Virus record (IMG/VR): IMGVR_UViG_3300045912_000069
Coordinates: 1 to 37,347 of that record
DNA length: 37,347 nucleotides
Strand: one strand, 5' to 3'
Origin: a virus
A model generated the notes under the pieces. The model was not told where the DNA came from. It was given only the letters and a program-made list of their open reading frames with translations, and searched no databases. Position numbers and translations under genes: made by a program. Position 1 is the stretch's first letter, and each line of letters opens with the position of its first letter. Positions 1 to 17,651 of this stretch are shown piece after piece.

Positions 1-3000
1 GGTATAGCACTAGACTTAACATACACAGGGTAGTAAGTCTTTAAGCTAGGGTTAAAATGATAACCATAATATACTGGTTTAGTAGGCTGTAATAGGATAT
101 TTAATTCTTCTTTGGAGAATTTAGCATCATCACCTGCCTTGTTTAATCTGTTTATAGAAGACTTGTATAATACGTCTGATATTTTACCTTCGTGGAATAG
201 GTTATATAGGTGCTCTTTTACAGTTATGAACTCTTGAGCATCTGCACCCTCTATATTAAAATAAGGGGCTGAATTTGGGTATTTAGAAGCAACGTAAGCA
301 GCTTTCTCTTTGTTGCCCATATTCTCTATCTCTTTAAGCTCTTTGTCGCTTAGATTCTTCTTATCTAGTATTTTTACAATATCCCTTATTGTTTTAGATG
401 TAGATACAGGGTCGTTAACCACTATTTGAGTGTAGTTTTTCCCTGTTAACCCTGCAATGTCTTTAGTTCTGTAGTTTGCTAAAGTTTCACCTGGGGCTAT
501 AAGACCTGCTAGCCTTTTACCTAAGTTTACAAGGGTTTCGTCATAATCTTTTTTATAAAAGTGAGCTATATCTCCTGCAAGAGCTTGAAATATGTTAAAG
601 TTTTGGATTATTTGGTTAACTTCATAGTCTAATGCGGAGTATGTTATAACAGACTTGCTTGAGTATTCAGTGGGGCCTATGTTAGGTATAGCTACATTTT
701 TAACATATTTAGAGTCAATAAACTTATAAGTAACATTACCCTCTTCATCCCTGTTAACTATCCCTAATTCTTCCCAATACTCTAGTTTGTTATCAACAAG
801 CTTAATAAGTTCTTGTTTAATTATGCCTTTTACATACTCCCTAACTGTAGCAAAGTTCTTTAAAGCGTATACATCATCTGTAATCTTATCCCATATATCT
901 AAGCTTTTATCGTTAAATATAGGGAACATAAAGAACATTTTAGAGCCTTCTTTGTATTCTGGAGTAGCCTCGTCTAAATTAAGCTTAGGTGTTATGGTAT
1001 CTTTCCACGTTTCTGTAATACGATAATATTCAGAATATACAACTTTTACAAGTTCATTTAGAGTGTCATTGTTTATATCAACTATTTTACCTTGTTTGTT
1101 TAAAGATGCTTTAGTTATATGCCCAAATAGGTTAAAGCCTAATAAGTTTTTCTTATCAGATGTTGTTAAACCTATATGTCTAATTTTCCTTAAGTTCTTT
1201 TTATTAAGCTTTTCATGTTTTATACCTTGGTTTTGGAACATAGCTATTCTTAACTTCTCTAGTTCTGCAGGGCTGAAGTCTTCAAGGTCTTTAAATTCTC
1301 TCTTACTTTTTTCTTTCTTTATTCCAGAAACATACCATACATCAAAATACTCCCTGAATAAGCTTTTGTAAGGTACCCCATTATCGTTATTAGTAAGGTA
1401 TTTTAATATATAAGAGTTTTCATTGAAAGGGAGCTTAAGCAATTCATTAACAAAGTTATTGTCAGATTTTAGCCTTTCTATTTGTTGTGTTGCGTATTTA
1501 TGAGGGGAGTATGACCATATAACATTCTTACCGTCATAGAAAGAGCTAGGTGTAGCAGTTTTATTTATTGTTGCGTAAAACTTAGCTAAAGCTCTAATCC
1601 CTAAATTGTCTACTAAAGGGTTATAGTTATCTAAACCTAGTTCATTTTTTTCAGAACTTAGCCTGTCAAATAAGCTTTTGAATATACCATTAGCAGAAGT
1701 AAAATGCTCTACTAATGATAGGTTTAAGTTTCTTCCAAATTCTTTAGAGAATACCCCTATATTCTTGCTATTAATAGCCTTTATTAAAGAGTTTACTTGT
1801 TTATCTTTAAAGTCTATACCAAAGTTATTAAGCCAAGCTTGTAACTTGGCAGGGTCTAGTTCTTCTTTTTCAACACTCTCTTTAAGCTCATTATAAGCCT
1901 TTTTAAGGCCTGCTACTTTATCAGGGTCTATAACTACCTCCCCGTTAACATCTTTCGTTATAGGGCTTTCTTTTAGGTTCTCCAGCCAGTTATTTATAAC
2001 AAAGGTTGTAGCACTAGAACGGTTACTTTCTATAGTACGGATATTGTAATCTCTGCCACCAAATTCATCTGTTTTGTAGTTCCATAATGTTAAGTATTTT
2101 TTAACAAAATGTTTATTAGCCCATTGTGTAAAGGCGTTTATAATTTGGTTTTCTGTAGCCTGAAACCTGTCAATATTCCTTTGTTGGTTTTGTTTTTGGC
2201 TTTCAGATACCTCAGCATTTTTTAAACTATTACCTTCAAGTAAATCTATTAGGTTATTTAACCAAGGGTATGCTGTAACATTGTCTAACATAGCCTGTTT
2301 CATAAGGTGAAAATCAGGGCCTACGTTAGCTAGTATAGACTGTAATACGGGTAAAGACTCCTCTAAAGGAAGATAGTTTGGTAAGCCTAACCAGTTTTTG
2401 TTAGTAGTATCTGCAATACGATAAAACATAGACTTAAGTAAAGGGGATATTTTATCGTTAGGGTTTTGTGTTAAAGCCCTATCTTCTCCGTATTTGTTAT
2501 CAGAACCCTCTTCATTGTCGTACTGGTATAAGTATTCAAAGTCTTTTGTTATCTTTTGATAGTTTTCAAACTCTTCAAGAACTGCTTTTTCAAACTTATC
2601 CCAAGCCTCTAAAACTTTAACAGCTTTACTATTACCTTTATTGGCATAAGCAGTAAAGTAGTCTTTCCAATTCTTTAAAGACTCTTCTTTTGTCAAAGCA
2701 TTAATCAGTACATCGTTTATCAACTCCCCAACAAGAAACCTTACAGTTTCATTTTGTTGTATTTCTGTTATTTTACCAGGGTTAAATAAGCCTAAATTAT
2801 TTAAATTTTCATTTGTTGCAGGCAAAAAGTCATTATAAAGGTCTATGTTTTTATCTTTAACAAATTCCTCAAACCCAGCTATATCCTTTTTGCCAGTACT
2901 TTCTCTGTACTCTGAATATAGTCTTTGAGCTAATTCTTTAGAAATTTTAGTTCCTTTTTGGTCTTTAGCAGTATTAATCTCAATATCATAATTAAAATCT

Positions 3001-6000
3001 CTTTTAAAATTCTCAAACTTTTCTAATACAGTATTACCTTCAAAATCTTTTAATATTTCTATTTGTTGTTTAGGAATACCTAAATCTTTTTGAATCTTAT
3101 TGTATAATACTTCTTTATCTTTTATTTGAGATTCCCATTTTTGTATTTGTTTAATATTAGATTCTATTTTATCTACTAACTGTAATTTGTAATCTATTTG
3201 CTCTTTACTAAAATCTTCATTATTTACAACTTGAGATTGTGCAAATTGTAAAGATTTTTCAGAAGCATCTTTTATAATAGATTCTAATGATTCTAATGCA
3301 ATATCATACGCTGAAGTATTTACCCCTAATAATTTTAAAATATTAGAAATAATTCTATCAAATAAAGAAACATTATTTAATTTTTTATTCTTTAGTTTCT
3401 TTACAAACTGTTCATTAGCAAGTTCAGCAAGTAATTCATCTACATTAGTTATCCCATATTCATTAGAAAATTCACTATCTTTTTGTAGTTCCTCTAATAA
3501 TATATTTAAATTTTTTACAGCTTGTATTTGTTCTTTTGATAAACTTTCATATTCTTCATTACTAACTTTTCTTTCTTGAACTTCTTGTACTATCTTAACA
3601 ACATATCTACTAACTCCATGTACTATTTCATGCACCGCTGTTTTAGTAAAACCTTCTGTAGCTATAAGATTTACATTAATAAATATTTTATTATCTTTAA
3701 GAAAAAATATTCCTTTTGCCGATTTTTCTACAAATTTTTGACTATTATCTGAAAATACAAATTTAACCCCTAATTTTTCAGCTACATTTTTAATAAGATT
3801 TAGTATAAATTTAGCTTGGTTAGATAATCCTAATGATTCTAATATTGAGGAAACCTCATTAATAGTATATTCTTTATTTACTTGAATATTATTATCTTGT
3901 ATTAATCTATCTACTTCTTTTTTATTATTCTCAACTTCTTCTTGTTTTTTACTTTTACTTAGATTGTCTTGCCTTAGTTGCTCTTCTGTAAGATTAATTA
4001 TATCATCTGTATGTTTTTCTATTAATTCTTTTATTTCAGAAAATAAATATTCACCTCCTTGGAGTAATTTTAAAATTTTTTTACCTTTTTCACTTTTAAC
4101 TTGAGAAGATATAGAATCATCTATTTGTTTAGAAACATCTTCCTTAACTTCACTAACAGTAGAAATTTTAGCTAATAAATTTTTAATTATTTGTTCTCTT
4201 GTTAGTTGAGTGTTTTTATTGTTTATAAATCTATAACCATTATCAATTTTTTCAGCTAATCCTTTTCTTACTAATTTTTCCCACAATTTAATAGCTGGTT
4301 TATCAGCTTCTGTTTTACCAAGTCTTCCTTCTTCTTCTAATTCTATAAGTAAGTCTATATTGTCAATTATTTTCTTTTTTTCTTCTTTTGATAATATTTT
4401 ACCGTCTAAAGTCCATTTTTCTGTTTTTGTATCTTTTAAAAATTCAACATCAGAATTAAGTTCTCCAAATCCTTGTTCTTGTAGTATTCTATTTATTTCA
4501 GTATAAACATCTTCACCAATACCTTGTTTTTGAAATTCTTTAAATACTTCTGCAATTTTAATATGTACTTTGCCATCTTTTATAGTTAATGTTACAAAAC
4601 CAACTAATTTTTCATCTTTAAAAATATCAGTTTCTATATCATTGTTATTATTAGTCGTTTTTACTTTTAACTGTAAATTCTTTTTATTAAATAAATCAGA
4701 TAAAGCTTTAGATATATTATTTACTACTACTTTGGAATTATTATTATTTATTTTATTTACATCAATTAACTCTTGTTGTTGTTTACTTAAACCTAATTCT
4801 GTAAGTATTTTTTCTAAAGACCAACCATTTTTTTCACCTTTTTCAAAAACTTCTTTTGCTTTTTCAGATTGAAGTATATTAATTATTTTTAATTCTTGAT
4901 TTACTTCATTATTAGAAAAACTTTTATTTACATAATTTTTAAATCCTTCTATATCTTTTCTACCAGTTTGTTCTACATAAGAAGAATAAGCTTCATAAAC
5001 ATTCTGAAGTTCTTTTAATCTCTCAGAACTAAATCCAATTTCACCAGTTTCTAAATCAATTCTTTGTAAAAATGCGTCAGTAAGTATTTGCGTTAGTTCT
5101 TGTTTTTGTAGTTTAGATAATGAATTAAATTTATCCAATATCCATTTTACAAATTTATTCCACCAATTCCAAGCTTCTCCTTTTTGCTTTACAGCTTGTT
5201 CACCAATAGACTGAACAAGAGCTTCTTCACTACCCCATTTTTTAATAGCTTCTTGTACAATAGGTGTATTTCTAAACCAAGCTATATAATGGTGAGCATA
5301 TTCATGAGGTAACGTATCTACTTTTTGATTTAAAGCGTCTATAAGAATAGTACCAGCTTTTATATTAGCTTGACCTATTATTCTGTTAAATTCATCCTTT
5401 TGTAATAATATATTTTCTAAATCTCTTGCTTGATTAATATTTAATTCATACCAACTATTATTATATTCATCAGTAATTTTTGGTACTATTTTATCAGTAT
5501 AATCTAATTTACCATCATTAAATCCTTCTGTTACAGAAATTTGTTCTGGTTTTTCAAACCATTGTATTTTATCTCTGTACTTTTCTATTTCAGAATTACT
5601 TTCAAAAGGTTTAACTCCTTTTGCTGTACTTAAAGTAATATGAGAATCTTTATTTTTTCCTTTAGGATTTTCTACTAAAAGTACATCTACTTTATCAGTA
5701 GTTAATCTACCTAATATTTTAATATTAGATTGTTTTCCTAATTCTATATTACTTAAATCTTTAGGTTTGAATTCTATTGTAGAATGATGGTAAAAATGAT
5801 TAGGATGTACAGGTTTAAATTTTTCTTTTAATTTATTTATATTATTTACAAACAAAGCATGATATACTGGATTATATGTAGCTATTGTTTCAATTTTTGT
5901 ATCTCCATAAATTTTATCAAGAATATTTTTAATAGTAGTTTCATAGAAATTAGCAATAGAAGATATTATTAATCTACCTGCTTTAGCATCTGCTATTTCT

Positions 6001-8195
6001 TTTTCTAATTGTTCAATTTGAATATTTACATTTTTAATCATTCTTTCTTGTTCTTCTATATATCTTTTATTGTTTTCTAATTCTTTTATTTCTTCTTTTA
6101 TATTATATTTCTTTTTAAAAGCATTTTTATAAGATTTTCTTATTTCTTTTCTTACTGTATTATAATCTCCTTGATTATTATAAATTCTTTGACCTAACCC
6201 TGCTAAAGTAACAGTATATGTATTTCTTTTCATTACTCCATCTACAGCAACTACTTTTCCATCAAGAGTTATTTTTCCATCTCTGCCTATTTCTACTACA
6301 AAAGAAGGTCTTTTAGGAACAGAATTAATTTTTTCATTAAGATTATTTATTACTTTTTTATAGTCTTCTATATTTATTTTATATCTCTCTATATTATGTT
6401 TTTTAATTTTAAGTTGACTTTCTTTATATCTAATAAATTCTTCAACAGTTTCATGTCCTTCAATTTTAGCAGCAGTATCTCCTGCAGGAAATAATACTTT
6501 TTCATATCCTTTTTTAGCACTATCTTGAATAATGGATTTAACAAAAAATGTAACCCAATTATTGTCTTTGTTTAAAAGTTGTAAGAATTTATCTTGCTTA
6601 AGTAGTTCTTCATCTCCATCCAATCTTCTTGATTCTTCATTTAATTTACTTATATCTCCCGCAAGCTCTTTTTTATCTCTACCTTTCTGAAATAAATCAG
6701 ATTGTACTTCAAGAATACGTCTTGTTTTAGTTTCTTTGCTATTTAAGAATTTAAAAGCTTCTTCTCTATTATTAAAAGAATCTATATCTCCTATTTCTGG
6801 TGCAGTCACTATCCACTCTCCATTTCTTTCTACTATATTTGTTCCAGATGAAACAGGATATTCAGAAATCATCTGCTCATCACTTCTAAACCAACCAATA
6901 CCATTATTAGTAGAAAATTGAGCATGACCTTTAATATTAGGTATAATAGCAGGTGTAGCTATTTCATTTTCTGTATAATTAGTACCTCCTAGAACTGTTA
7001 GATTTGAATAATAAGATGTATTTTTTCTACTATTCCATTTATCTTTAGCTTCTTGCTCTGTATTAAAAATTAAAGGAGACAAAGTACCATCATCAGATTG
7101 AAGTCTAAATTTACCATTTTCATCTTTTATTATATTTACTTTTTCCCCAAACCTACTAATTGCTCCTTCTTTAGCAGTATTAATTTCAATAGTATAACTA
7201 AAATTAGCTAATAAATCTGCAATTATTTGTTCTCTATTTAAAGATTTATTAGTAATTAATTCTTGTTGTTGTTTAGGTATACCTAATTCAGTAAGTATTT
7301 TTTCTAAAGACCAATTATTTTTTTCTCCTTTAGCAAATACTTGTTTAGCTTTATCAGATAAAAGAATATCTATAATTTTTAGTCTGTATTTTATTTGATT
7401 ATCATATTCTTCTTGATTTTTAACAATATTACTTGATTGTTCCCATATAGGATTATTAGTAATATTTAATTTAATTTCAGGATATAGTTTTTGAAGTTTT
7501 TCTTGTAGTTTTTGTTTTAAAATATTAGTATTAAAAAACTCTTTGAACCCTTCTATATCTTTTCTACCAGTTTGTTCTACATAAGTAGAATAAGCTTGTA
7601 GAGCTTGTTGTTCTTGTTGTGGAGTTATTTCTTTGCTTAATATTTCCTCTTTTTCTTTTTTAACTTTTTTATACAAATCAGAGGATTGAATAGATAAAAT
7701 ACTTTTAATAGCTCCTATTTTACTATTAAAAATTTCTTCTTCTGATAAATCTACAGGAATTTTACTTTCAGGCTTTCCTAATTTATCAGCAATTTTATTA
7801 AATTTAATAATAGAATGTTTTAAAGATTTACTTCTTTTAACCCCATTGATATTATAATCATTAGCTATAATTTCTAAAATATTAATGAATTTGTCTTTGG
7901 TAAATGAACTAACATTTGTATATCCAAAAGCTTTGTTTACTAAACTATTAATATAAGAATTTATAAAATCTAATGTTTTCTTAACTTCCTGATATTTTTT
8001 ACTTAATTCTGTAATAGGATTTCCAAATTGGTCAAACTTATATTGAGTATTTTTAAACCCTAAAGCTTCATAAACACTATTTCTAAGGTTTTCATCAGAA
8101 TTAAACAAGTCATTAATAGATACTTGTCTTTTAAGGTATTGAAGAAATTGTTCTTCAGGTATAGATTGATTTTTATATTTTATTACACAGCCCAT
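1..8195 (-). CDS. Virion RNA polymerase polypeptide with N-terminal zincin and GNAT-like domains (3' end outside window)
   Basis: One open frame of 2731 codons runs without a stop to the left edge, so the C-terminus is missing. The start is the ATG at 8195-8193; an in-frame stop lies two codons upstream. Domains seen: N-terminal repeat modules (about residues 198-341); a polyvalent-protein-like domain with EVQSDLFQ at 496 and a GDT segment at 572; a zincin HEYAHH at 964-969 followed by an Ala/Glu-rich EEALVQSIGEQ segment; a second repeat set (1066-1145); a GNAT-like QGIGED at 1224-1229; a second zincin HEIVHG at 1522-1527 followed by DELLAELANE; a third, degenerate repeat (1743-1778). From about 1780 onward it resembles crAss-like virion RNA polymerases of the two-barrel DFDID type, including GADAQEF near 2650 and a QPTKPVY segment. 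The catalytic DxDxD motif is not reached. By family knowledge it is packaged and co-injected to transcribe early genes. Role of the N-terminal enzymes is inference. Confidence 0.8.
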   Translation of the reverse strand, partial: MGCVIKYKNQSIPEEQFLQYLKRQVSINDLFNSDENLRNSVYEALGFKNTQYKFDQFGNPITELSKKYQEVKKTLDFINSYINSLVNKAFGYTNVSSFTKDKFINILEIIANDYNINGVKRSKSLKHSIIKFNKIADKLGKPESKIPVDLSEEEIFNSKIGAIKSILSIQSSDLYKKVKKEKEEILSKEITPQQEQQALQAYSTYVEQTGRKDIEGFKEFFNTNILKQKLQEKLQKLYPEIKLNITNNPIWEQSSNIVKNQEEYDNQIKYRLKIIDILLSDKAKQVFAKGEKNNWSLEKILTELGIPKQQQELITNKSLNREQIIADLLANFSYTIEINTAKEGAISRFGEKVNIIKDENGKFRLQSDDGTLSPLIFNTEQEAKDKWNSRKNTSYYSNLTVLGGTNYTENEIATPAIIPNIKGHAQFSTNNGIGWFRSDEQMISEYPVSSGTNIVERNGEWIVTAPEIGDIDSFNNREEAFKFLNSKETKTRRILEVQSDLFQKGRDKKELAGDISKLNEESRRLDGDEELLKQDKFLQLLNKDNNWVTFFVKSIIQDSAKKGYEKVLFPAGDTAAKIEGHETVEEFIRYKESQLKIKKHNIERYKINIEDYKKVINNLNEKINSVPKRPSFVVEIGRDGKITLDGKVVAVDGVMKRNTYTVTLAGLGQRIYNNQGDYNTVRKEIRKSYKNAFKKKYNIKEEIKELENNKRYIEEQERMIKNVNIQIEQLEKEIADAKAGRLIISSIANFYETTIKNILDKIYGDTKIETIATYNPVYHALFVNNINKLKEKFKPVHPNHFYHHSTIEFKPKDLSNIELGKQSNIKILGRLTTDKVDVLLVENPKGKNKDSHITLSTAKGVKPFESNSEIEKYRDKIQWFEKPEQISVTEGFNDGKLDYTDKIVPKITDEYNNSWYELNINQARDLENILLQKDEFNRIIGQANIKAGTILIDALNQKVDTLPHEYAHHYIAWFRNTPIVQEAIKKWGSEEALVQSIGEQAVKQKGEAWNWWNKFVKWILDKFNSLSKLQKQELTQILTDAFLQRIDLETGEIGFSSERLKELQNVYEAYSSYVEQTGRKDIEGFKNYVNKSFSNNEVNQELKIINILQSEKAKEVFEKGEKNGWSLEKILTELGLSKQQQELIDVNKINNNNSKVVVNNISKALSDLFNKKNLQLKVKTTNNNNDIETDIFKDEKLVGFVTLTIKDGKVHIKIAEVFKEFQKQGIGEDVYTEINRILQEQGFGELNSDVEFLKDTKTEKWTLDGKILSKEEKKKIIDNIDLLIELEEEGRLGKTEADKPAIKLWEKLVRKGLAEKIDNGYRFINNKNTQLTREQIIKNLLAKISTVSEVKEDVSKQIDDSISSQVKSEKGKKILKLLQGGEYLFSEIKELIEKHTDDIINLTEEQLRQDNLSKSKKQEEVENNKKEVDRLIQDNNIQVNKEYTINEVSSILESLGLSNQAKFILNLIKNVAEKLGVKFVFSDNSQKFVEKSAKGIFFLKDNKIFINVNLIATEGFTKTAVHEIVHGVSRYVVKIVQEVQERKVSNEEYESLSKEQIQAVKNLNILLEELQKDSEFSNEYGITNVDELLAELANEQFVKKLKNKKLNNVSLFDRIISNILKLLGVNTSAYDIALESLESIIKDASEKSLQFAQSQVVNNEDFSKEQIDYKLQLVDKIESNIKQIQKWESQIKDKEVLYNKIQKDLGIPKQQIEILKDFEGNTVLEKFENFKRDFNYDIEINTAKDQKGTKISKELAQRLYSEYRESTGKKDIAGFEEFVKDKNIDLYNDFLPATNENLNNLGLFNPGKITEIQQNETVRFLVGELINDVLINALTKEESLKNWKDYFTAYANKGNSKAVKVLEAWDKFEKAVLEEFENYQKITKDFEYLYQYDNEEGSDNKYGEDRALTQNPNDKISPLLKSMFYRIADTTNKNWLGLPNYLPLEESLPVLQSILANVGPDFHLMKQAMLDNVTAYPWLNNLIDLLEGNSLKNAEVSESQKQNQQRNIDRFQATENQIINAFTQWANKHFVKKYLTLWNYKTDEFGGRDYNIRTIESNRSSATTFVINNWLENLKESPITKDVNGEVVIDPDKVAGLKKAYNELKESVEKEELDPAKLQAWLNNFGIDFKDKQVNSLIKAINSKNIGVFSKEFGRNLNLSLVEHFTSANGIFKSLFDRLSSEKNELGLDNYNPLVDNLGIRALAKFYATINKTATPSSFYDGKNVIWSYSPHKYATQQIERLKSDNNFVNELLKLPFNENSYILKYLTNNDNGVPYKSLFREYFDVWYVSGIKKEKSKREFKDLEDFSPAELEKLRIAMFQNQGIKHEKLNKKNLRKIRHIGLTTSDKKNLLGFNLFGHITKASLNKQGKIVDINNDTLNELVKVVYSEYYRITETWKDTITPKLNLDEATPEYKEGSKMFFMFPIFNDKSLDIWDKITDDVYALKNFATVREYVKGIIKQELIKLVDNKLEYWEELGIVNRDEEGNVTYKFIDSKYVKNVAIPNIGPTEYSSKSVITYSALDYEVNQIIQNFNIFQALAGDIAHFYKKDYDETLVNLGKRLAGLIAPGETLANYRTKDIAGLTGKNYTQIVVNDPVSTSKTIRDIVKILDKKNLSDKELKEIENMGNKEKAAYVASKYPNSAPYFNIEGADAQEFITVKEHLYNLFHEGKISDVLYKSSINRLNKAGDDAKFSKEELNILLQPTKPVYYGYHFNPSLKTYYPVYVKSSAI
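4771..4840 (-). repeat. Direct repeat B, copy 2 (WSLEKILTELG module)
   Basis: This 70-base segment aligns without gaps to 7261-7330, with 63 of 70 positions identical. It encodes residues about 1119-1142 of the polymerase polypeptide, including the WSLEKILTELG and KQQQELI segments. The offset of 2490 bases is divisible by three. Confidence 0.9.
4945..4993 (-). repeat. Direct repeat A, copy 2 (YVEQTGRKDIEGF module)
   Basis: This 49-base segment matches 7549-7597 at 48 of 49 positions, with the first 37 identical. It encodes the module SYVEQTGRKDIEGF around residue 1078 of the polymerase polypeptide. The offset of 2604 bases is divisible by three. Confidence 0.95.
7261..7330 (-). repeat. Direct repeat B, copy 1 (WSLEKILTELG module)
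   Basis: This is the partner of 4771-4840 (63/70 identical). It encodes polymerase residues about 289-312, with W295. In this copy it lies about 85 residues after repeat A, against about 47 in the second copy, so the two modules have been spaced differently. Confidence 0.9.
7549..7597 (-). repeat. Direct repeat A, copy 1 (YVEQTGRKDIEGF module)
   Basis: This is the partner of 4945-4993 (48/49 identical), encoding TYVEQTGRKDIEGF around residue 210. A third, diverged protein-level copy (YRESTGKKDIAGF) lies near residue 1768, at about 2860-2930. Confidence 0.95.
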
Positions 8196-8797
8196 ATTTT
8201 ATTCATTTTAATTTTTTCAATAGTACCTACTGATACATTATATTTAGAAGCAATTTCTTTCATTTTTAATTTACCAAATAAGCATTTTATCTCATTTGCA
8301 ATATCTTGATTAAGTTTAGCGTTTGGGTGATTTTCACCTTTAAACTTTTGAGATATTTTTTCTTTAGTTTCGTTAGATAATGTTTTTCCTAAATGAGCTT
8401 TTCTAATACTATCTTTATATTCGTCAGATAATTTTCTACCTACTCTACTTGGATGATTTTTATTACTTTCAGATATTTTTTGTTTATGTTCTTCTGTAAG
8501 AACTAAACCTAAATTACTATTAACTTGTTTTCGTTTGTTGAAAGTTGGATTAAAAATATCTATAAAAAATTGTTCGAGTTTAAGTAAATATTCTTTTGGG
8601 CATTTTGCTAATATTTCAAATGTAAAATTATCCTTACCATATTTATTATAGGAACTTTGCAAATGTTTATTAGGATGCTTACACAAATTCATATTTGCAA
8701 AATGAGTTCTTTTTCTACTATTCAAGTTAACAGCAGAACCTATATAACTATCATTAGTTATAATATTTGTTATTTTATATATTCCGCTTATGAACAT
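8183..8797 (-). CDS. GIY-YIG homing endonuclease with NUMOD3-like repeats and C-terminal HTH
   Basis: The 204-residue product has the nuclease signature GIY at 5-7 and YIG at 18-20, an Arg-rich helix (R28-R30) and a Glu in LLKLEQFF (E75) suited to be the metal ligand. Residues about 96-158 hold about three NUMOD3-type DNA-binding repeats of the form G.xLS.E.K.KI. Residues about 160-204 form a helix-turn-helix (MKEIASKYNVSVGTIEKI) ending in IW, as in phage and group I intron nucleases. It overlaps the end of the upstream cargo gene by 10 bases and the start of the polymerase by 13, so it sits between two intact genes and is best read as free-standing. It is AT-rich like the polymerase N-terminus. 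It would cut an intron- or insert-less allele to spread itself and flanking DNA; the target is unknown. Confidence 0.9.
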   Translation of the reverse strand: MFISGIYKITNIITNDSYIGSAVNLNSRKRTHFANMNLCKHPNKHLQSSYNKYGKDNFTFEILAKCPKEYLLKLEQFFIDIFNPTFNKRKQVNSNLGLVLTEEHKQKISESNKNHPSRVGRKLSDEYKDSIRKAHLGKTLSNETKEKISQKFKGENHPNAKLNQDIANEIKCLFGKLKMKEIASKYNVSVGTIEKIKMNKIWAV

Positions 8798-11700
8798 TGC
8801 TTTTCAACTATTTTTTCTTTAATTAACAAAGATAACAAATTTTCAGCAGAAATGCCAGGATTAGTTAATAATTTTGAATACACTTGATTAGCTAATTCAG
8901 GATTAGATTCAAACAAATCATCAACTTCATTTGCAGAAGGTAACTCATCATTACTTTCATCATCATTAATTTCATAAGCCCCGTAAAGCCCACTTTTAGG
9001 AGGTATAGGAGTTTCATCAATTTCTTTATTGGCAGGCTCTGTTTTATTTTCAACACCCTGTTCTGTATCATAAGCTATAGTAAATACAGGGTTATCAAAA
9101 TAAGTCTCTACACTTTCGTTATTATTAGAAATTTCATTACTAGCAAGTGATGTATAAGTATTAGCTTTAACAAACTCTTGGTAATTGTCAAAGGTTTTAG
9201 TTGTAATATTCCCAGCTTCATCATACTCTTGAACAGTAAAAGGTTTATTACTATACTCTGTTAAGTTTCCTAAATCATAAGTTATAAACAAATTGTCTAT
9301 AACAGTCTTTAAATCTTTAACAAGGCTTTCATGTAAAGTAGGGAGGTTAGTGCTTATAGTCTTTATTTTACCACCAGACCAACCAAACTTAAGCTCATTA
9401 CCTTGCATACTTAAGTAGAATCTATCTTCCTCTTGTACAGCAAAGTATTCCCCCTGAGTTATATTATTCATGTTATTTTTAAGAAAAATATACTTACTTA
9501 AAAAGTTTCTTAAATCAGCCAAAGTACTTATTCCAAGCTCTTTTAAATGAGACTTTTGCGCTTCACTTTTGTTTTTATTGAAAAAAGATATAATAGTATC
9601 CTTAAGTATATTACCATAGTTAGTATCACTTACTTTTAAAGTTTTTAAAGGTACAGCAAGCTTCCTACCGTCATAAGTATCCATAACAGCATAAGGTACA
9701 CCCGGTATTACCTTAGTGTTTAATAAACCTGTTATAACACTATCTGTAGTATTGTTAAGGGTTCCTGTAGCTGTTGCTATCCCTATAGTAGAAAGTTTAG
9801 GGAAAGCTTCATTAGTAAGCCTGAATGTACTTCCAATAAACCTAGGTACTGAATGTGTTTCATTCTTTTGTACATTGTATTTAAGCCATCCGTTAGCAAC
9901 TTCCTCTATCTTAGAGGTAATTCCACCTTTTGCTAAAATTTCATCCCTTATATTTTTAAGCTTTAATCTTTCTTCGTCTATAACTTCACTTGGAGTATTA
10001 GACTCGTTTATGAAAGACATTGCGTGTAAGTACCCTAAAAGCTCTCCATTTGCATTATATATGCCTATAGGTACATACATATTGCCCAAGTCAGAAAGTG
10101 TCCTAAAATCAATCTGAGTGCCCTTTTTGAGGGTGGTTATAATATCACCATTCTCATTAATAAAATCTGTATCCCTTTCTAAGGTATAGGGTTTAAATTC
10201 TGCTGCGCTAATAGGCTTTAAAGCTACAGGGTCACCTGCTTTTAAATAACCAGGCCTTAGTACATTAGGGTTAGTAACTTCCCTAGATGCATCGTTGCTT
10301 ATAGTAGCTTTACCTTTTGCAGTTTGAATATAATCCCTAGAACGACCATAGGCAATAGCTACGCTAGGTGTTAATAGTTTAAATTCAGAGAACACTAATC
10401 TTTTACCTGAGTAAGCATCACCCTCTTTGTCACTATTACTAATATATTCTTGTAACTTATAAATTTCATAATTTTCATCAAAATGGTTATAGTTCTCCCC
10501 ATTTTCAGTAGGGGTAATATCAGACTCTTTAGGGCCAGCTGTTGTTTTTTCTTCTTCCCCTTCTTTTTCAGAAGTACCCTCTTCAGGCTCTTGGCTTTCA
10601 GGAGTTTCTTCTTGTGTGGTAGTTTCAGTACCTGAATCTGTCCCCTTATTGCTAATGCCTAAAGCTTTGTTAATTTCATCAGATTTGCTAACAGGTGCTG
10701 CCCCTATAGCTGCATAAGGGTCGAAGTTGTCATATTCTTCTTCCTCATAAACCTGTGGAGGTTGTTCCTCATTTTTAGGCTGTTCTTGTTGAGCTTGTTC
10801 TGGGTTAATTACAGTCTTAGCATCTTGTTTTGCAGCATCCTTAGCCGCCTCTTGAGCTTCCCCTGCTGTAGCAGCTTCTTCTGCTTTTTTAGTATGGTAT
10901 TCTTCAGCAGCCTCTTTTTTACTTCTTGCTTCAAAATCTGATTCTAATTTTTTTAAATATTCTTTGTCCGAATATTTCGTATACATTTCATTGTATAGTT
11001 TGTAAGCAGTTTCAACCTGCGCCTTTTTATTAACTAAAGAAAATACCTCAAATAATTCCTCAGAATTTAAAAGCTTTTGCTTTGTAGCTTCAAGAACTTC
11101 TTCCCCATTTTGGGCTTTAAGCTCAGCTATCTTAGCATTAAGTTCTCGTAGCTTAGGGTTTAACGTAGTAGATAGTTTCCTATTGTTTTTAGCAAAATCT
11201 TCTACATCTTGTAGTTCAGCCTCTAAAGCTAATAAGTTAATAGCTTGTAAGGTGTTAGGGTCCCTGTAAATTGCATAGTTATCAGCATTAAGCTTGTTAA
11301 CAGCAACATATAACTCATTGCTTACATTTAGTAAAGTTTCTTTAGATTGTTTAACTTTACGGTATGTGTCATATATGGCAGGTATAAGTTTAGCCCCTAT
11401 ATCTGTTGCCCCATACTTATTGTTAATTTTTATATAGTCTTTTTCAGCAACCTTAAGCTTTTCAAGCATTTTGTTTGCTTCTTCTTTGTAGTTTTCAGAA
11501 AAACCTTTTTCCTTAGCTTCTTCAGGTTTTAACTCCCTGATACTTTTTATTTCTTCTTCTAATATTTCAGTAGTCCCCAACATAAAGTTGTTAAGGAATG
11601 TTTCATCTAAACTTTCTTGTCTAAGTTTTTCATAGGTTATAATGTCCCCTGTTCTTAATGCTTTTTGTTTAGCCACTTCCCTTTCAGTAAAGTTTTTTAA

Positions 11701-12903
11701 AGCATCATGTAATGCAGCAGTATTCTTCCCTATTTGCTCCTCTTGTTTTGCCCTATACGCTTTATCGCTTTTTTGCACGAAACGCATAGCCCCTTTATTA
11801 ATGATGCCCCACTGTACAGGACCGCCAGCAAAACCAAGTGAAAAATTAAGTATAGCATCTTCTGTTTGAGCATATTCTAAAGCTCTTTTTAAATAACTAC
11901 TTTGGTCATCTTCTATTATGCCCGATTTTATTTTTGCAGAACGAGTACCCTCAGATTCAAAGAACCCTCCAGTAAACTCTTCAGTACCCTCTATGATACC
12001 TTCTTTACCAAACTCTTTTAACGCAGCTTTAATACCGCCTTCCCTAAAATTCCTGGTATAGTTCATACCTCTTAATTGAGCACGTAAACCTAACATGTTT
12101 AATAGTATGTTAGATTTATATGCTATAAGAACGTCTGCTGCACTTTCTGCAGCTATCTTAGGGTCAATACCTTGTTTTACTAAATCATCGTATAAAGCAA
12201 CTGAAACAGCTTTACCTTCAGCATGGTTCATTAAAAATGCAGATGTTGCTGATGTTGCTAAATCTAATCCTCTTTTCCCAAGTTTTGCAGCTCCTGAAAC
12301 CCTTAATATTTTAGAGGCGGCCCCAAATGTGCCTAAGCCCATTAGACCAAAACCTACAGCACTATCTATTAAGCCTTGTAGTTGAAATGCCCACCAATCT
12401 GGGTCTCCTAAATCTATAGTTTCTTCAGGGTTGTTTCTATGTATAGGAAATACCTCTTCTCTTAAGTAGTCTTTCCCTGAACGCATTGCATCAGAGAACC
12501 AGTTACTTCCGTCTTCATCCCCTGCTATACTTGTCCATTCTCCTACGTCTGCTAAATACCCGAAACCTTCTAATAAAGAAAGTACCCCCATTGATACACC
12601 ACCTGCAGTAGTATTGATTAAGCCTCCCCAAAAACCTTGTCTATCAGCTTTAGCAATTTCTTCTTTACGCCTTTTGTCTTCTAAACGAGCTAAGTTATAA
12701 GTTTCCCCTAAAGCAGGTTTAAACTCATCCCCTAGAGTAGTTTTCATAGAAAAAGGAAGTTCTTTAGAAGTGTGTATAGGAGCATTCTGAAGCTCACCTT
12801 CTCTTTTAGCCCTTAATAATTCTAGCTTTTCTTTATAAGAAATTGAGGGGTTATTACCATCAGTTTCAGGTAACCCTGTTATTGGATTTAAATTTTCAGG
12901 CAT
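8788..12903 (-). CDS. Large virion cargo (ejection) protein, 1371 residues
   Basis: This is the third of three consecutive large cargo genes and lies directly before the polymerase, the place of injected proteins in crAss-like phages. Visible parts: a charged N-terminus (1-90); two hydrophobic Gly/Ala-rich segments (about 91-118 and 173-197) that could be membrane-inserting helices; an alpha-helical region with long charged coiled-coil stretches (about 380-680); an acidic, Gln/Glu/Pro/Thr-rich linker (about 700-830); and a C-terminal region with more beta-like sequence. No enzyme motif was recognised. It starts 10 bases after the preceding stop. The last 60 or so codons are AT-richer and belong compositionally to the downstream block. 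The likely role, by position and build, is to leave the virion with the DNA and help form a channel across the host envelope. Family assignment is by context and general likeness, not a search. Confidence 0.75.
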   Translation of the reverse strand: MPENLNPITGLPETDGNNPSISYKEKLELLRAKREGELQNAPIHTSKELPFSMKTTLGDEFKPALGETYNLARLEDKRRKEEIAKADRQGFWGGLINTTAGGVSMGVLSLLEGFGYLADVGEWTSIAGDEDGSNWFSDAMRSGKDYLREEVFPIHRNNPEETIDLGDPDWWAFQLQGLIDSAVGFGLMGLGTFGAASKILRVSGAAKLGKRGLDLATSATSAFLMNHAEGKAVSVALYDDLVKQGIDPKIAAESAADVLIAYKSNILLNMLGLRAQLRGMNYTRNFREGGIKAALKEFGKEGIIEGTEEFTGGFFESEGTRSAKIKSGIIEDDQSSYLKRALEYAQTEDAILNFSLGFAGGPVQWGIINKGAMRFVQKSDKAYRAKQEEQIGKNTAALHDALKNFTEREVAKQKALRTGDIITYEKLRQESLDETFLNNFMLGTTEILEEEIKSIRELKPEEAKEKGFSENYKEEANKMLEKLKVAEKDYIKINNKYGATDIGAKLIPAIYDTYRKVKQSKETLLNVSNELYVAVNKLNADNYAIYRDPNTLQAINLLALEAELQDVEDFAKNNRKLSTTLNPKLRELNAKIAELKAQNGEEVLEATKQKLLNSEELFEVFSLVNKKAQVETAYKLYNEMYTKYSDKEYLKKLESDFEARSKKEAAEEYHTKKAEEAATAGEAQEAAKDAAKQDAKTVINPEQAQQEQPKNEEQPPQVYEEEEYDNFDPYAAIGAAPVSKSDEINKALGISNKGTDSGTETTTQEETPESQEPEEGTSEKEGEEEKTTAGPKESDITPTENGENYNHFDENYEIYKLQEYISNSDKEGDAYSGKRLVFSEFKLLTPSVAIAYGRSRDYIQTAKGKATISNDASREVTNPNVLRPGYLKAGDPVALKPISAAEFKPYTLERDTDFINENGDIITTLKKGTQIDFRTLSDLGNMYVPIGIYNANGELLGYLHAMSFINESNTPSEVIDEERLKLKNIRDEILAKGGITSKIEEVANGWLKYNVQKNETHSVPRFIGSTFRLTNEAFPKLSTIGIATATGTLNNTTDSVITGLLNTKVIPGVPYAVMDTYDGRKLAVPLKTLKVSDTNYGNILKDTIISFFNKNKSEAQKSHLKELGISTLADLRNFLSKYIFLKNNMNNITQGEYFAVQEEDRFYLSMQGNELKFGWSGGKIKTISTNLPTLHESLVKDLKTVIDNLFITYDLGNLTEYSNKPFTVQEYDEAGNITTKTFDNYQEFVKANTYTSLASNEISNNNESVETYFDNPVFTIAYDTEQGVENKTEPANKEIDETPIPPKSGLYGAYEINDDESNDELPSANEVDDLFESNPELANQVYSKLLTNPGISAENLLSLLIKEKIVEKQCS

Positions 12904-12913
12904 TTAAATACTA

Positions 12914-15251: not shown

Positions 15252-17651
15252 TTACCAGCTATAATCCCAACCAAATTCATTATTTAAAAGATACTGTGCG
15301 AATAAGTTTCTTAAAGAGTTATTAGCAGCATTATTGTATGCATTATTACTTGCATAAGCCCTATTGTCCCTAGCATTACCTTTAAAAGCACTTGTTCCAC
15401 TTACTATACCGTCTAACAATGCTTTTTGATAAGCCGCTTTATTCATTTCATTTGCAATGAACTCATCGTTAGCGGTTTTAGTGTTAAACATGTTAGCGTT
15501 GTTTAATATCTGATTGTTATAGTTTGCTTCATTTTGTACAGACTGACCTAGACCTTGGTTTAATGCTTGTGTGTTTAAAGCATTACCTGTAATCATTGCA
15601 GCTAAATAAGATGCAGGAGTCTGTGCTGTATTCCTTATATTTTGATTCACTGTAGCTCTGTTAGTGGCTGCATTTTGTTTTAGTAAATCCCGTTCAAGTT
15701 CTAAGTTAACAGTTTCAGGGTTAAGCCTTTGAAACTTTGTTTGAGCAGGCCCCTTTCTTGACATAAACATTTGTGTTGCAGCAGGTAAGTAAGAGGCGAA
15801 CTGCTCACCAAAGGTTAACTTATTGTTAAACATATCTCCATTGCCAGCCCCTTTTGCCCCCTTATAATTGCCGTATTGAGAAAAGTCATTAGGGCCCTTA
15901 ATAGCATTATTCATGCCTTTAATATCGGCTTCCGAAGCTTGTATCCCGCTTAAACCTCTTGGTGTTACTCTTTGAGGGTTAGCATAGGAATTTAAAAAAT
16001 CCATGTTATTATTTACAGCCTCTAAAGCTCTAAGACCTATGTCAGAAGTGCCTAAGCTATATTTAGTTTTATAAGGCTTTATGAACATACCCCCATTTTT
16101 ATACTTTACAGAGTAGGTATTCCCATCTTGAGGTATAAACTGTTTTATATGCTCTTGAGTCTGCATAAGGTTGTTTAATTCCCTTTCTTTTGCAGTATCA
16201 GAGTATTTATCATTAACTCTTTTTGAATATTTATTCTCTATTTTTTTAGAACGGTCTGCTATAGTTTGTTTACTATTAGGGTATAGAATAGAATCAGAGA
16301 ATACAAAGTCTTTGTAACGAGTTTCTCCATGTTCTACTTCTGCATTAGTATTACCTAATGGTATACCTCCATATTCGTGAGTATTACCTTTATAACGAGT
16401 TAAATCACCCCCTTGTTCAAAAGACTGTTTAGGGGCTGTAAAATTACTTTTATCCCTATGTTTTAAAAGCATATTTATAAACTGCTTAGTCATAGGGTCG
16501 TTATTAGGGTCGTACTTCCTATATTCAAAACCATCATCTTCATTCATCCCTGCATGTTTTATAAATTGCTGAGAGAAACCAGGTTTACTTTTTATAACAG
16601 GTTGTAAAGGACCTCCTGAATAAGGAGCTGCTTCTGGCATAGGCATACTCGGTAAGCCTCTTGGAGTAACCATGTTCAAAGGCTCTTGCGTCATTTGCTC
16701 TGCTACAGGTTGTTGTAAAGGTTCTTTTGTAGCATTAAAGTTTTTAGGCTTATTGTAGTATTCAGGATGAAACTTTCTGCGTTGAGCTTCTGTTTTCATA
16801 CTAAAAGGTATTAACGATTCTATGTCGTTATAACCTGGTATAAGTACCACTGCACCAGGGTCAGAGAAGCTGTTATAACTTTGGTAATAATTAGGCTTAA
16901 TTAAAGGGTCGTATAAAGCCCCTGGAGCTACTAAGTTTACACCCCCTTCATAATAATCTTTAATTTCTAAAGCTCTTCCTTTTTTAGGGTTAGTTTCTGG
17001 ACTATTTAAAACTTTTTTAAGTTGACTTAAATCTTTATCCAGGTAACCCATGCTCTTTAATACCTTGGGCCAATCTTTTTCAGGGTGTTGTGATAATTCG
17101 TATTTTATTTTATCCTTATGAGTTTTTAAATTAGCGTTAATCCATTCTGGGTCTAGCCTCTGTTTTGAAGTAACATGGGCATGGTCTGTATTTAACCTAG
17201 GACCTTTTCTATAATTTCTAGATTTGTCTGTATAAAAGTCTTGTAAAGCAAGCTGATTTTTATACAAAGCTAAGCTATCAGCAGCTGTAGGTGTATTGGT
17301 TGTGAAAGGATCTGGAAATATAGGTCCTCCTGCATCATAAGATAACCTTTGATTTTGTGCTATTGAAGCATTGGCACCTTGTCCAACCATAGACATTAAG
17401 TTGCCTGCCCCAGGTGCTACAGAGTTTAATGCCATAGTACCAGCAGCCCCTGCTATAGGAGCCATAAAATTGCTATAACTGTTGTATTTATCAGCGTAGT
17501 CCCCTTTATAAGAGTTTTCATTTATAACATCAGGCATTCCTAAAAGGGATAGGGCTAAGTCGCCTTGCAGTCTTAGGGTGTTACCTAAAGCTTGTCCAGT
17601 CTTTTTAAAGAAGCCTCCCTTATCATATTTTTGCTTTTTAGGTTTTTTCAT
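15252..17651 (-). CDS. Virion cargo protein with HExGGIP segment, 799 residues
   Basis: This is the first gene after the muzzle, the position of cargo protein C1 in PhiCrAss001. It has a Lys-rich N-terminus (MKKPKKQKYDKGG), a Gly/Ala-rich hydrophobic region at about 63-100, and near residues 423-432 the segment HEYGGIPLG followed by AEVEHGET and FVFSD. That segment is a hallmark of a protein family common next to tail genes of crAss-like and other Bacteroidota phages. The C-terminal third is Asn/Ala/Gln-rich (from about 600). No catalytic residues are evident. A short region with a palindrome and a possible promoter separates it from the muzzle gene, so it may begin its own transcript. Likely an internal protein ejected with the genome; what the conserved segment does is unknown. 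Confidence 0.78.
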   Translation of the reverse strand: MKKPKKQKYDKGGFFKKTGQALGNTLRLQGDLALSLLGMPDVINENSYKGDYADKYNSYSNFMAPIAGAAGTMALNSVAPGAGNLMSMVGQGANASIAQNQRLSYDAGGPIFPDPFTTNTPTAADSLALYKNQLALQDFYTDKSRNYRKGPRLNTDHAHVTSKQRLDPEWINANLKTHKDKIKYELSQHPEKDWPKVLKSMGYLDKDLSQLKKVLNSPETNPKKGRALEIKDYYEGGVNLVAPGALYDPLIKPNYYQSYNSFSDPGAVVLIPGYNDIESLIPFSMKTEAQRRKFHPEYYNKPKNFNATKEPLQQPVAEQMTQEPLNMVTPRGLPSMPMPEAAPYSGGPLQPVIKSKPGFSQQFIKHAGMNEDDGFEYRKYDPNNDPMTKQFINMLLKHRDKSNFTAPKQSFEQGGDLTRYKGNTHEYGGIPLGNTNAEVEHGETRYKDFVFSDSILYPNSKQTIADRSKKIENKYSKRVNDKYSDTAKERELNNLMQTQEHIKQFIPQDGNTYSVKYKNGGMFIKPYKTKYSLGTSDIGLRALEAVNNNMDFLNSYANPQRVTPRGLSGIQASEADIKGMNNAIKGPNDFSQYGNYKGAKGAGNGDMFNNKLTFGEQFASYLPAATQMFMSRKGPAQTKFQRLNPETVNLELERDLLKQNAATNRATVNQNIRNTAQTPASYLAAMITGNALNTQALNQGLGQSVQNEANYNNQILNNANMFNTKTANDEFIANEMNKAAYQKALLDGIVSGTSAFKGNARDNRAYASNNAYNNAANNSLRNLFAQYLLNNEFGWDYSW

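What the first reader, a model, noticed from the sequence alone, without database searches (positions are those of the whole stretch)
1..8195. Virion RNA polymerase polypeptide carries two different zincin domains plus other enzyme-like modules
One frame of at least 2731 codons has HEYAHH at 964-969 and HEIVHG at 1522-1527, each followed by an Ala/Glu-rich segment that could give the third zinc ligand, upstream of a crAss-like RNA polymerase region. Metalloprotease-like domains in large phage polyvalent proteins are known. Two of them in a single polymerase chain, either side of a GNAT-like domain, is unusual. They may cut the polypeptide to release the polymerase, or act on host proteins after injection.
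Basis: partly seen in the sequence, partly recalled or inferred. Interest (0 to 1): 0.75.

Follow-up and report, generated by a model that had tools for sequence, protein, structure and literature searches.

The report
Zincin-rich crAss-like virion RNA polymerase
A giant protein that a crAss-like phage probably injects with its DNA joins an RNA polymerase to two (on a continuing contig, three) metal-dependent protease-type domains, which is a richer version of a known arrangement and points to where the protein may cut itself.

Summary
One minus-strand frame (window 8195 to 3, 2731 aa, running off the contig) has HEYAHH at 964 and HEIVHG at 1522; shuffles of the same protein give 0.027 HExxH. 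Both sites sit in conserved domains with an invariant later Glu (E991, E1587). Z2 (1434-1642) is a confident zincin: AlphaFold pLDDT 88, profile E 1e-18 to phage internal virion proteins, weaker to the N4 virion RNA polymerase. Z1 (868-1062) is a conserved HExxH-x22-E domain whose predicted fold stayed uncertain. The C-terminal 740 aa match the crAss-like phi14:2 RNA polymerase (E 1e-23). The catalytic motif is off the window, but contig L077 overlaps the window end by exactly 127 bases and continues the frame: 4264 aa implied, GSDFDIDK at 3073 and a third zincin at 3880. "Unusual" needs toning down. Of 80 polymerase chains sampled without using zincins, 52 have an HExxH and 10 have two, mostly in two fixed places flanking the polymerase. 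Zincins fused to N4-type virion polymerases were described in 2017. Z1 looks mobile: 90% identical in a phage whose polymerase is barely alignable. Best guess: slot zincins process the polyprotein; Z1 is an exchangeable effector-type module. No activity was tested.

The parts
3..8195 (-). gene of the large chain P0001 (2731 aa, 3' end missing; implied full length 4264 aa with contig L077)
1..127 (.). exact 127-base overlap with the end of contig IMGVR_UViG_3300045912_000119 (L077), which continues the frame with GSDFDIDK (aa 3073) and a third zincin HELLHG (aa 3880)
5010..5594 (-). zincin-type domain Z1, aa 868-1062
   Evidence: 30-sequence alignment, own-profile match 5e-82, weak model
5289..5306 (-). 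HEYAHH, aa 964-969
5223..5225 (-). E991, invariant Glu 22 residues after the motif, candidate third zinc ligand of Z1
4416..4748 (-). GNAT-like acetyltransferase domain, aa 1150-1260
   Evidence: PF00583 above cut-off; a GNAT-like stretch also ends phi14:2 gp078
3270..3896 (-). zincin domain Z2, aa 1434-1642
   Evidence: AF2 pLDDT 88.2; PDB profile hits; viral fold hits
3615..3632 (-). HEIVHG, aa 1522-1527
3435..3437 (-). E1587, invariant Glu of the motif YGxTNxxE, candidate third zinc ligand of Z2
3..2396 (-). N-terminal part of the crAss-like RNA polymerase core, aa 1934-2731
   Evidence: 6vr4 residues 272-1037, E 1.2e-23
6276..7166 (-). conserved module of unknown function, aa 344-640, usually directly before Z1 in relatives
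   Evidence: no Pfam match above cut-off
7530..7595 (-). joint repeat A copy 1 (AYSTYVEQTGRKDIEGFK), aa 201-222
4926..4991 (-). joint repeat A copy 2, aa 1069-1090, just after Z1
2853..2921 (-). joint repeat A copy 3, aa 1759-1781, just before the polymerase
7245..7349 (-). joint repeat B copy 1, aa 283-317
4764..4877 (-). joint repeat B copy 2, aa 1107-1144
3036..3188 (-). joint repeat B copy 3, aa 1670-1720, just after Z2
7167..7238 (-). joint repeat C copy 1 (NREQIIADLLANFSYTIEINTAK), aa 320-343
4146..4208 (-). joint repeat C copy 2, aa 1330-1350
2961..3023 (-). joint repeat C copy 3, aa 1725-1745
15252..17651 (-). crassvirus cargo protein 1 homologue upstream in the same gene block
   Evidence: PF25725 above cut-off

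Best explanation
This is the virion RNA polymerase polyprotein of a crAss-like phage of the Fipvunavirus side (nearest named relative: FpV4 gp32, 4287 aa). Shown by sequence: an N-terminal modular arm with zincin Z1, a GNAT domain and zincin Z2, then the polymerase core; on the overlapping contig the catalytic DxDxD and a third zincin. Z2 and the third zincin lie at the two fixed distances from the active site (1551 aa before, 807 aa after) where zincins recur in other crAss-like polymerase chains. Inferred: the chain is packed in the head and ejected with the DNA; the two slot zincins process or trim the polyprotein around the polymerase core, while Z1, which moves between distantly related phages, is an exchangeable module that acts on something else, most simply a host protein, like the GNAT beside it.
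For: Motifs beyond chance (62 HExxH in 80 polymerase chains vs 2.4 in shuffles). Z2 fold and homology: AF2 pLDDT 88; profile matches to internal virion protein 9sfn 1e-18, ejection protein 8vb2 7e-12, lethal-factor zincin 2.5e-5, N4 virion polymerase 1.5e-4; viral fold hits include phi14:2 gp076 and a Vibrio virion RNA polymerase, both probability 1.00. Polymerase: 6vr4 E 1.2e-23; GSDFDIDK on L077 in frame after a 127-base exact overlap. Fixed slots: 28 HExxH at 1200-1700 aa before and 26 at 750-1300 aa after the active site, 8 elsewhere. Z1 mobility: 90% aa and 89% nt identity in L005, whose polymerase is 27% identical over 410 aa, while the nearest polymerases (L072, L073, 34-35%) lack Z1. 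Carrier proteins are virion components in relatives: crAss001 gp47, with a zincin at its C-terminal end, by mass spectrometry (PMC10172136); phi14:2 gp076 annotated as structural by MS/MS.
Against: No proteolysis is shown. N4 virion polymerase is packaged uncleaved although it has a zincin (stated in PMC5512222). 16 of 44 upstream-slot zincins have HExxE, so that slot may keep a non-proteolytic role. In crAss001 and phi14:2 the zincin is on a separate protein from the polymerase, so cutting is not needed to free it. The Z1 model is weak (pLDDT 59; no fold match). The L077 join is inferred from overlap, not from one contig.
Confidence: 0.45

Rival explanations
1. All zincins of the chain are injected effectors that cut host proteins (for example to blunt defence or host transcription); the polymerase is only their carrier.
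For: Z1 moves between distant phages at 90% identity, sits beside a GNAT domain, and polyvalent proteins in general carry effector modules (PMC5512222). Z2 relatives include the lethal-factor zincin clan, whose known member cuts host proteins.
Against: The slot zincins keep fixed distances to the polymerase active site across very divergent phages, which free effectors would not need.
Confidence: 0.25
2. The slot zincins are mainly structural: parts needed for packing the chain in the head, ejection or holding the polymerase, with catalysis optional or lost.
For: 16 of 44 upstream-slot zincins have HExxE. In N4 the zincin region is required for encapsidation while the chain stays uncut (PMC5512222), and it forms the C1 subdomain of the C-terminal domain that binds the polymerase (PMC12633501).
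Against: Both zincins of this window and the third on L077 keep HExxH and a candidate third Glu; the other 28 upstream-slot sites keep HExxH.
Confidence: 0.25
3. Z1 is not a metalloprotease-type domain; HEYAHH there is part of another conserved fold.
For: Low-confidence model and no fold match; only weak Pfam SprT-like matches, best 0.005.
Against: Invariant HEYAH plus invariant E991 across 30 sequences down to 27% identity; the model's better part has three strands, then the HExxH helix, then a helix with the Glu; profile comparison aligns its HExxH and preceding strand with those of Z2, E 1.3e-4, probability 54%.
Confidence: 0.12
4. The two motifs are chance HExxH occurrences.
For: None found.
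Against: Shuffles and conservation.
Confidence: 0.01

Closest known systems
FpV4 gp32 (Flavobacterium phage, Fipvunavirus), 4287 aa virion structural protein
   Same: Polymerase core homologous over aa 1777-2730 of the window chain; similar full length; DYDIDK at 3116 and a C-terminal zincin HEVIH at 4065, like the implied full chain.
   Different: No second HExxH and no recognisable Z1, Z2 or GNAT in its N-terminal half.
Virion RNA polymerase of crAss-like phage phi14:2 (PDB 6vr4) and its neighbours gp078 and gp076
   Same: Polymerase core homology; GNAT-like stretch in gp078 and Z2-type zincin in gp076 (1.6e-28).
   Different: The parts lie on three separate proteins, with one zincin only.
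N4-like virion RNA polymerase with zincin-like MPTase domain (Iyer 2017, PMC5512222; PMC12633501)
   Same: Giant packaged polymerase fused to a zincin of the Z2 clan (profile match to residues 2153-2268).
   Different: T7-like single-subunit polymerase with the zincin on its C-terminal side; here a crAss-type polymerase with zincins on both sides.
Zincin-like MPTase domains of phage polyvalent proteins (Iyer 2017)
   Same: HExxH plus later helix Glu, several copies per chain interspersed with GNAT and other modules.
   Different: Crass-type polymerase chains with two fixed zincin slots were not found described in the papers read.
crAss001 gp47 (cargo, RNA-polymerase-associated)
   Same: Zincin at its C-terminal end, HEAFH at 2157 of 2341.
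   Different: A different zincin type (Z3); polymerase gp50 is on a separate gene.

Membership tests
crAss-like virion RNA polymerase | sequence homology to the phi14:2 polymerase core | tested here: met
   profile of aa 1934-2731 plus relatives vs 6vr4, E 1.2e-23, residues 272-1037
crAss-like virion RNA polymerase | catalytic DxDxD | tested here: met
   absent from the window but GSDFDIDK at aa 3073 on contig L077, joined by a 127-base exact overlap; the join is an inference
crAss-like virion RNA polymerase | packaged in the virion and transcribing early genes | not testable with these tools
   FpV4 gp32 is annotated as virion structural protein
zincin-like MPTase of polyvalent proteins, Z2 | HExxH with Glu ligand on a later helix | tested here: met
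   invariant H1522, E1523, H1526, E1587 in 23 sequences
zincin-like MPTase of polyvalent proteins, Z2 | zincin fold | tested here: met
   pLDDT 88.2; PDB profile hits; best PDB fold hits are zincins but weak, E 0.35; viral fold hits to E 2e-7
zincin-like MPTase of polyvalent proteins, Z1 | HExxH with Glu ligand | tested here: met
   invariant HEYAH and E991 in 30 sequences
zincin-like MPTase of polyvalent proteins, Z1 | zincin fold | tested here: inconclusive
   pLDDT 59, no fold match; profile comparison with Z2 E 1.3e-4, probability 54%
zincin-like MPTase | zinc-dependent peptidase activity | not testable with these tools
   needs purified protein
N4-like virion RNA polymerase | T7-like single-subunit polymerase core | tested here: not met
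   the only significant solved match of the core is 6vr4
GNAT acetyltransferase | Pfam family score above curated cut-off | tested here: met
   PF00583 22.5 vs 20.7 bits on aa 1120-1280; below cut-off on the whole chain

The most novel reading that the evidence does not exclude
The full chain is a self-processing triple-zincin polymerase polyprotein: zincins placed at the two fixed slots on either side of the crAss-type polymerase cut at the repeated joints to excise the polymerase after ejection, and a third, horizontally exchanged zincin is released as a host-directed effector.
Probability: 0.25. Interest if true: 0.75.

Novelty: new variant of a known kind. Interest (0 to 1): 0.5.

Why it matters
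How crAss-like phages pass very large polymerase proteins through a tail channel under 50 angstroms wide and make them work is open. Two zincin slots at fixed distances from the active site, shared by many sampled crAss-like polymerase chains, give exact places to look for cuts and exact residues to change. The exchangeable Z1 module is a candidate injected effector.

Tried and rejected
Chance motif: rejected. N4-type polymerase: rejected, only 6vr4 matches. A gene split by the GIY-YIG endonuclease at 8183-8797: not supported; P0001 has its own ATG, no Rfam intron match exists in the window, and its length with L077 is close to that of FpV4 gp32. A whole-protein search of viral contigs found nothing, so domain alignments were used. 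Foldseek with the weak Z1 model gave only noise. Transthyretin and superoxide dismutase hits at E about 0.1-1 are noise. MT835645 is fragmented under table 11 and opens with TAG=Q, consistent with the recoding known in such phages (PMC7886860). HEVNHV in L025 lies inside the polymerase region and is probably not a zincin.

Full report
Observation. The frame is on the minus strand, from an ATG at 8195 to the contig end at 3, 2731 codons with no stop. HEYAHH is at aa 964 and HEIVHG at aa 1522. In 5000 shuffles of the protein 4878 have no HExxH and 2 have two. The window is a 37,347-base virus record.

Polymerase. A tblastn search linked aa 2118-2730 to gp32 of Flavobacterium phage FpV4 and relatives, 27% identity. 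FpV4 gp32 matches the solved crAss-like phi14:2 RNA polymerase, 6vr4, at 4e-20 and has DYDIDK at 3116. An alignment of aa 1934-2731 with relatives matches only 6vr4, E 1.2e-23, over 6vr4 residues 272-1037. The upstream gene 15252-17651 holds the Pfam crassvirus cargo protein 1 domain, and several virion genes match FpV4 genes in the same order. Yutin et al. 2021 (PMC7886860) report a gut genome grouping with the related Fpv3 beside the main crAss-like groups.

The missing end. The window has no DxDxD. Among polymerase loci found independently, L077 is the end of contig IMGVR_UViG_3300045912_000119. Its first 127 bases equal the reverse complement of window 1-127 exactly, end to end, and the frame continues. 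A 127-base end overlap is what an assembly with k = 127 leaves between neighbouring contigs; that reading is an inference. The implied chain is 4264 aa, close to the 4287 of FpV4 gp32, with GSDFDIDK at 3073 and a third zincin, HELLHG at 3880 (Z2 profile 2.8e-19). The next gene on L077 encodes 1199 aa before the coding strand changes, much as in FpV4.

Z2. In 23 aligned sequences H1522, E1523, H1526, Y1580, N1584, E1587 and F1597 are invariant. AlphaFold gives pLDDT 88.2, pTM 0.81. A profile of the family matches phage internal virion or ejection proteins in the PDB at 1e-18, 7e-12 and 2e-10, the lethal-factor zincin at 2.5e-5, and the N4 virion polymerase at 1.5e-4 to 7e-4, there over residues 2153-2268, the region that Iyer et al. 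2017 (PMC5512222) named a zincin-like MPTase. Against solved structures the model's best meaningful hits are zincins, but weak. Against viral models it matches crAss-like proteins to 2e-7, phi14:2 gp076 and a Vibrio virion RNA polymerase, each with probability 1.00.

Z1. In 30 sequences D-T-x-P-H-E-Y-A-H-x-Y and E991 are invariant, giving HExxH-x22-E. The model is poor overall, pLDDT 59, but its better half shows three strands, the HExxH helix and a helix carrying the Glu. Foldseek found nothing. A profile comparison aligns Z1 with Z2 at the motif, E 1.3e-4, probability 54%. I call Z1 a probable zincin.

How common is this? To avoid counting only zincin-containing chains, I sampled 80 loci by the polymerase motif alone. 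In their polymerase frames there are 62 HExxH against 2.4 in shuffles; 52 chains have at least one and 10 have two. Of the 62, 28 lie 1200-1700 aa before the active site and 26 lie 750-1300 aa after it. Five loci (L105, L127, L132, L144, L146), probably one related group, have two zincins before the polymerase, as here. The window chain fills both slots (1551 before, 807 after) and adds Z1 at 2109 before; no sampled chain has three. Counts are lower bounds because many contigs end inside a slot region, and the sample keeps the 80 loci nearest to one query.

Cultured relatives split the same parts over several virion proteins: crAss001 gp47 has a zincin at 2157 of 2341 aa, phi14:2 gp076 has a Z2-type zincin and gp078 a GNAT-like end. 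gp47 was found in virions by mass spectrometry (PMC10172136).

Catalytic variation. In 16 of 44 chains with a recognisable motif in the upstream slot it reads HExxE. This warns against assuming proteolysis everywhere.

Mobility. Z1 is 90% identical in protein and 89% in DNA to L005, whose polymerase is only 27% identical over 410 aa; the nearest polymerases, L072 and L073, have no Z1. A slower rate of change in Z1 could explain part of this, but not the absence in the nearest polymerases. The high-identity block ends at aa 1066, where a joint repeat begins. Three joint repeats (A, B, C) recur at module borders of the chain with 62-89% DNA identity. They may be recombination joints, and they are candidate cleavage sites; neither is shown.

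Mechanism. Shown: domain identities, fixed slots, uneven distribution of Z1. Established by others: crAss-like and N4 polymerases travel in the virion. Inferred: slot zincins process the polymerase chain; Z1 with GNAT is effector-like. Rivals are a purely effector role or a purely structural role, both still open.

Novelty. Zincins fused to giant virion polymerases, sometimes several per chain, with possible self-processing, are known for N4-like phages (PMC5512222). What I did not find in the papers read is the two-slot pattern around crAss-type polymerases, the HExxE variants, or a triple-zincin chain; the library lacks many subscription papers, so this is not proof of absence. I rate it a new variant of a known kind.

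Noticed in passing
L088, L089, L090, L100, L103, L106, L111, L116, L118, L119, L121, L123, L138, L139, L142, L150: Zincin-like domain just upstream of crAss-like RNA polymerase with HExxE in place of HExxH, the rest of the domain conserved: inactive, or a changed metal site.
   Followed up: partly
window 1-127 and L077 (IMGVR_UViG_3300045912_000119): Two public virus contigs overlap end to end by exactly 127 bases and seem to be parts of one phage genome.
   Followed up: partly
window 2853-7595, nine stretches (repeats A, B, C): Short repeats of 62-89% DNA identity recur at the borders of unrelated modules in one gene, and also appear in relatives at other places.
   Followed up: partly
window 8183-8797: GIY-YIG homing endonuclease gene wedged between two large genes of the virion-protein block, overlapping both by a few bases.
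   Followed up: partly
L006 (frame 5620-13716): One 2699-aa chain has HEYAHH, HEISHI and a degenerate Z2 copy with EEVIH.
   Followed up: no
L003 (MT835645): Unannotated human-gut crAss-like contig whose 5334-aa polymerase frame opens only with TAG read as an amino acid; a Z1 domain lies near the start of the next gene, followed by a nuclease-like stretch.
   Followed up: partly
window 6276-7166 (aa 344-640): Conserved module with ILEVQSDLFQ that travels with Z1 in many relatives and matches no Pfam family.
   Followed up: no
window 8788-12903: 1371-aa frame in the large virion-protein block with no match in Pfam or PHROGs.
   Followed up: no
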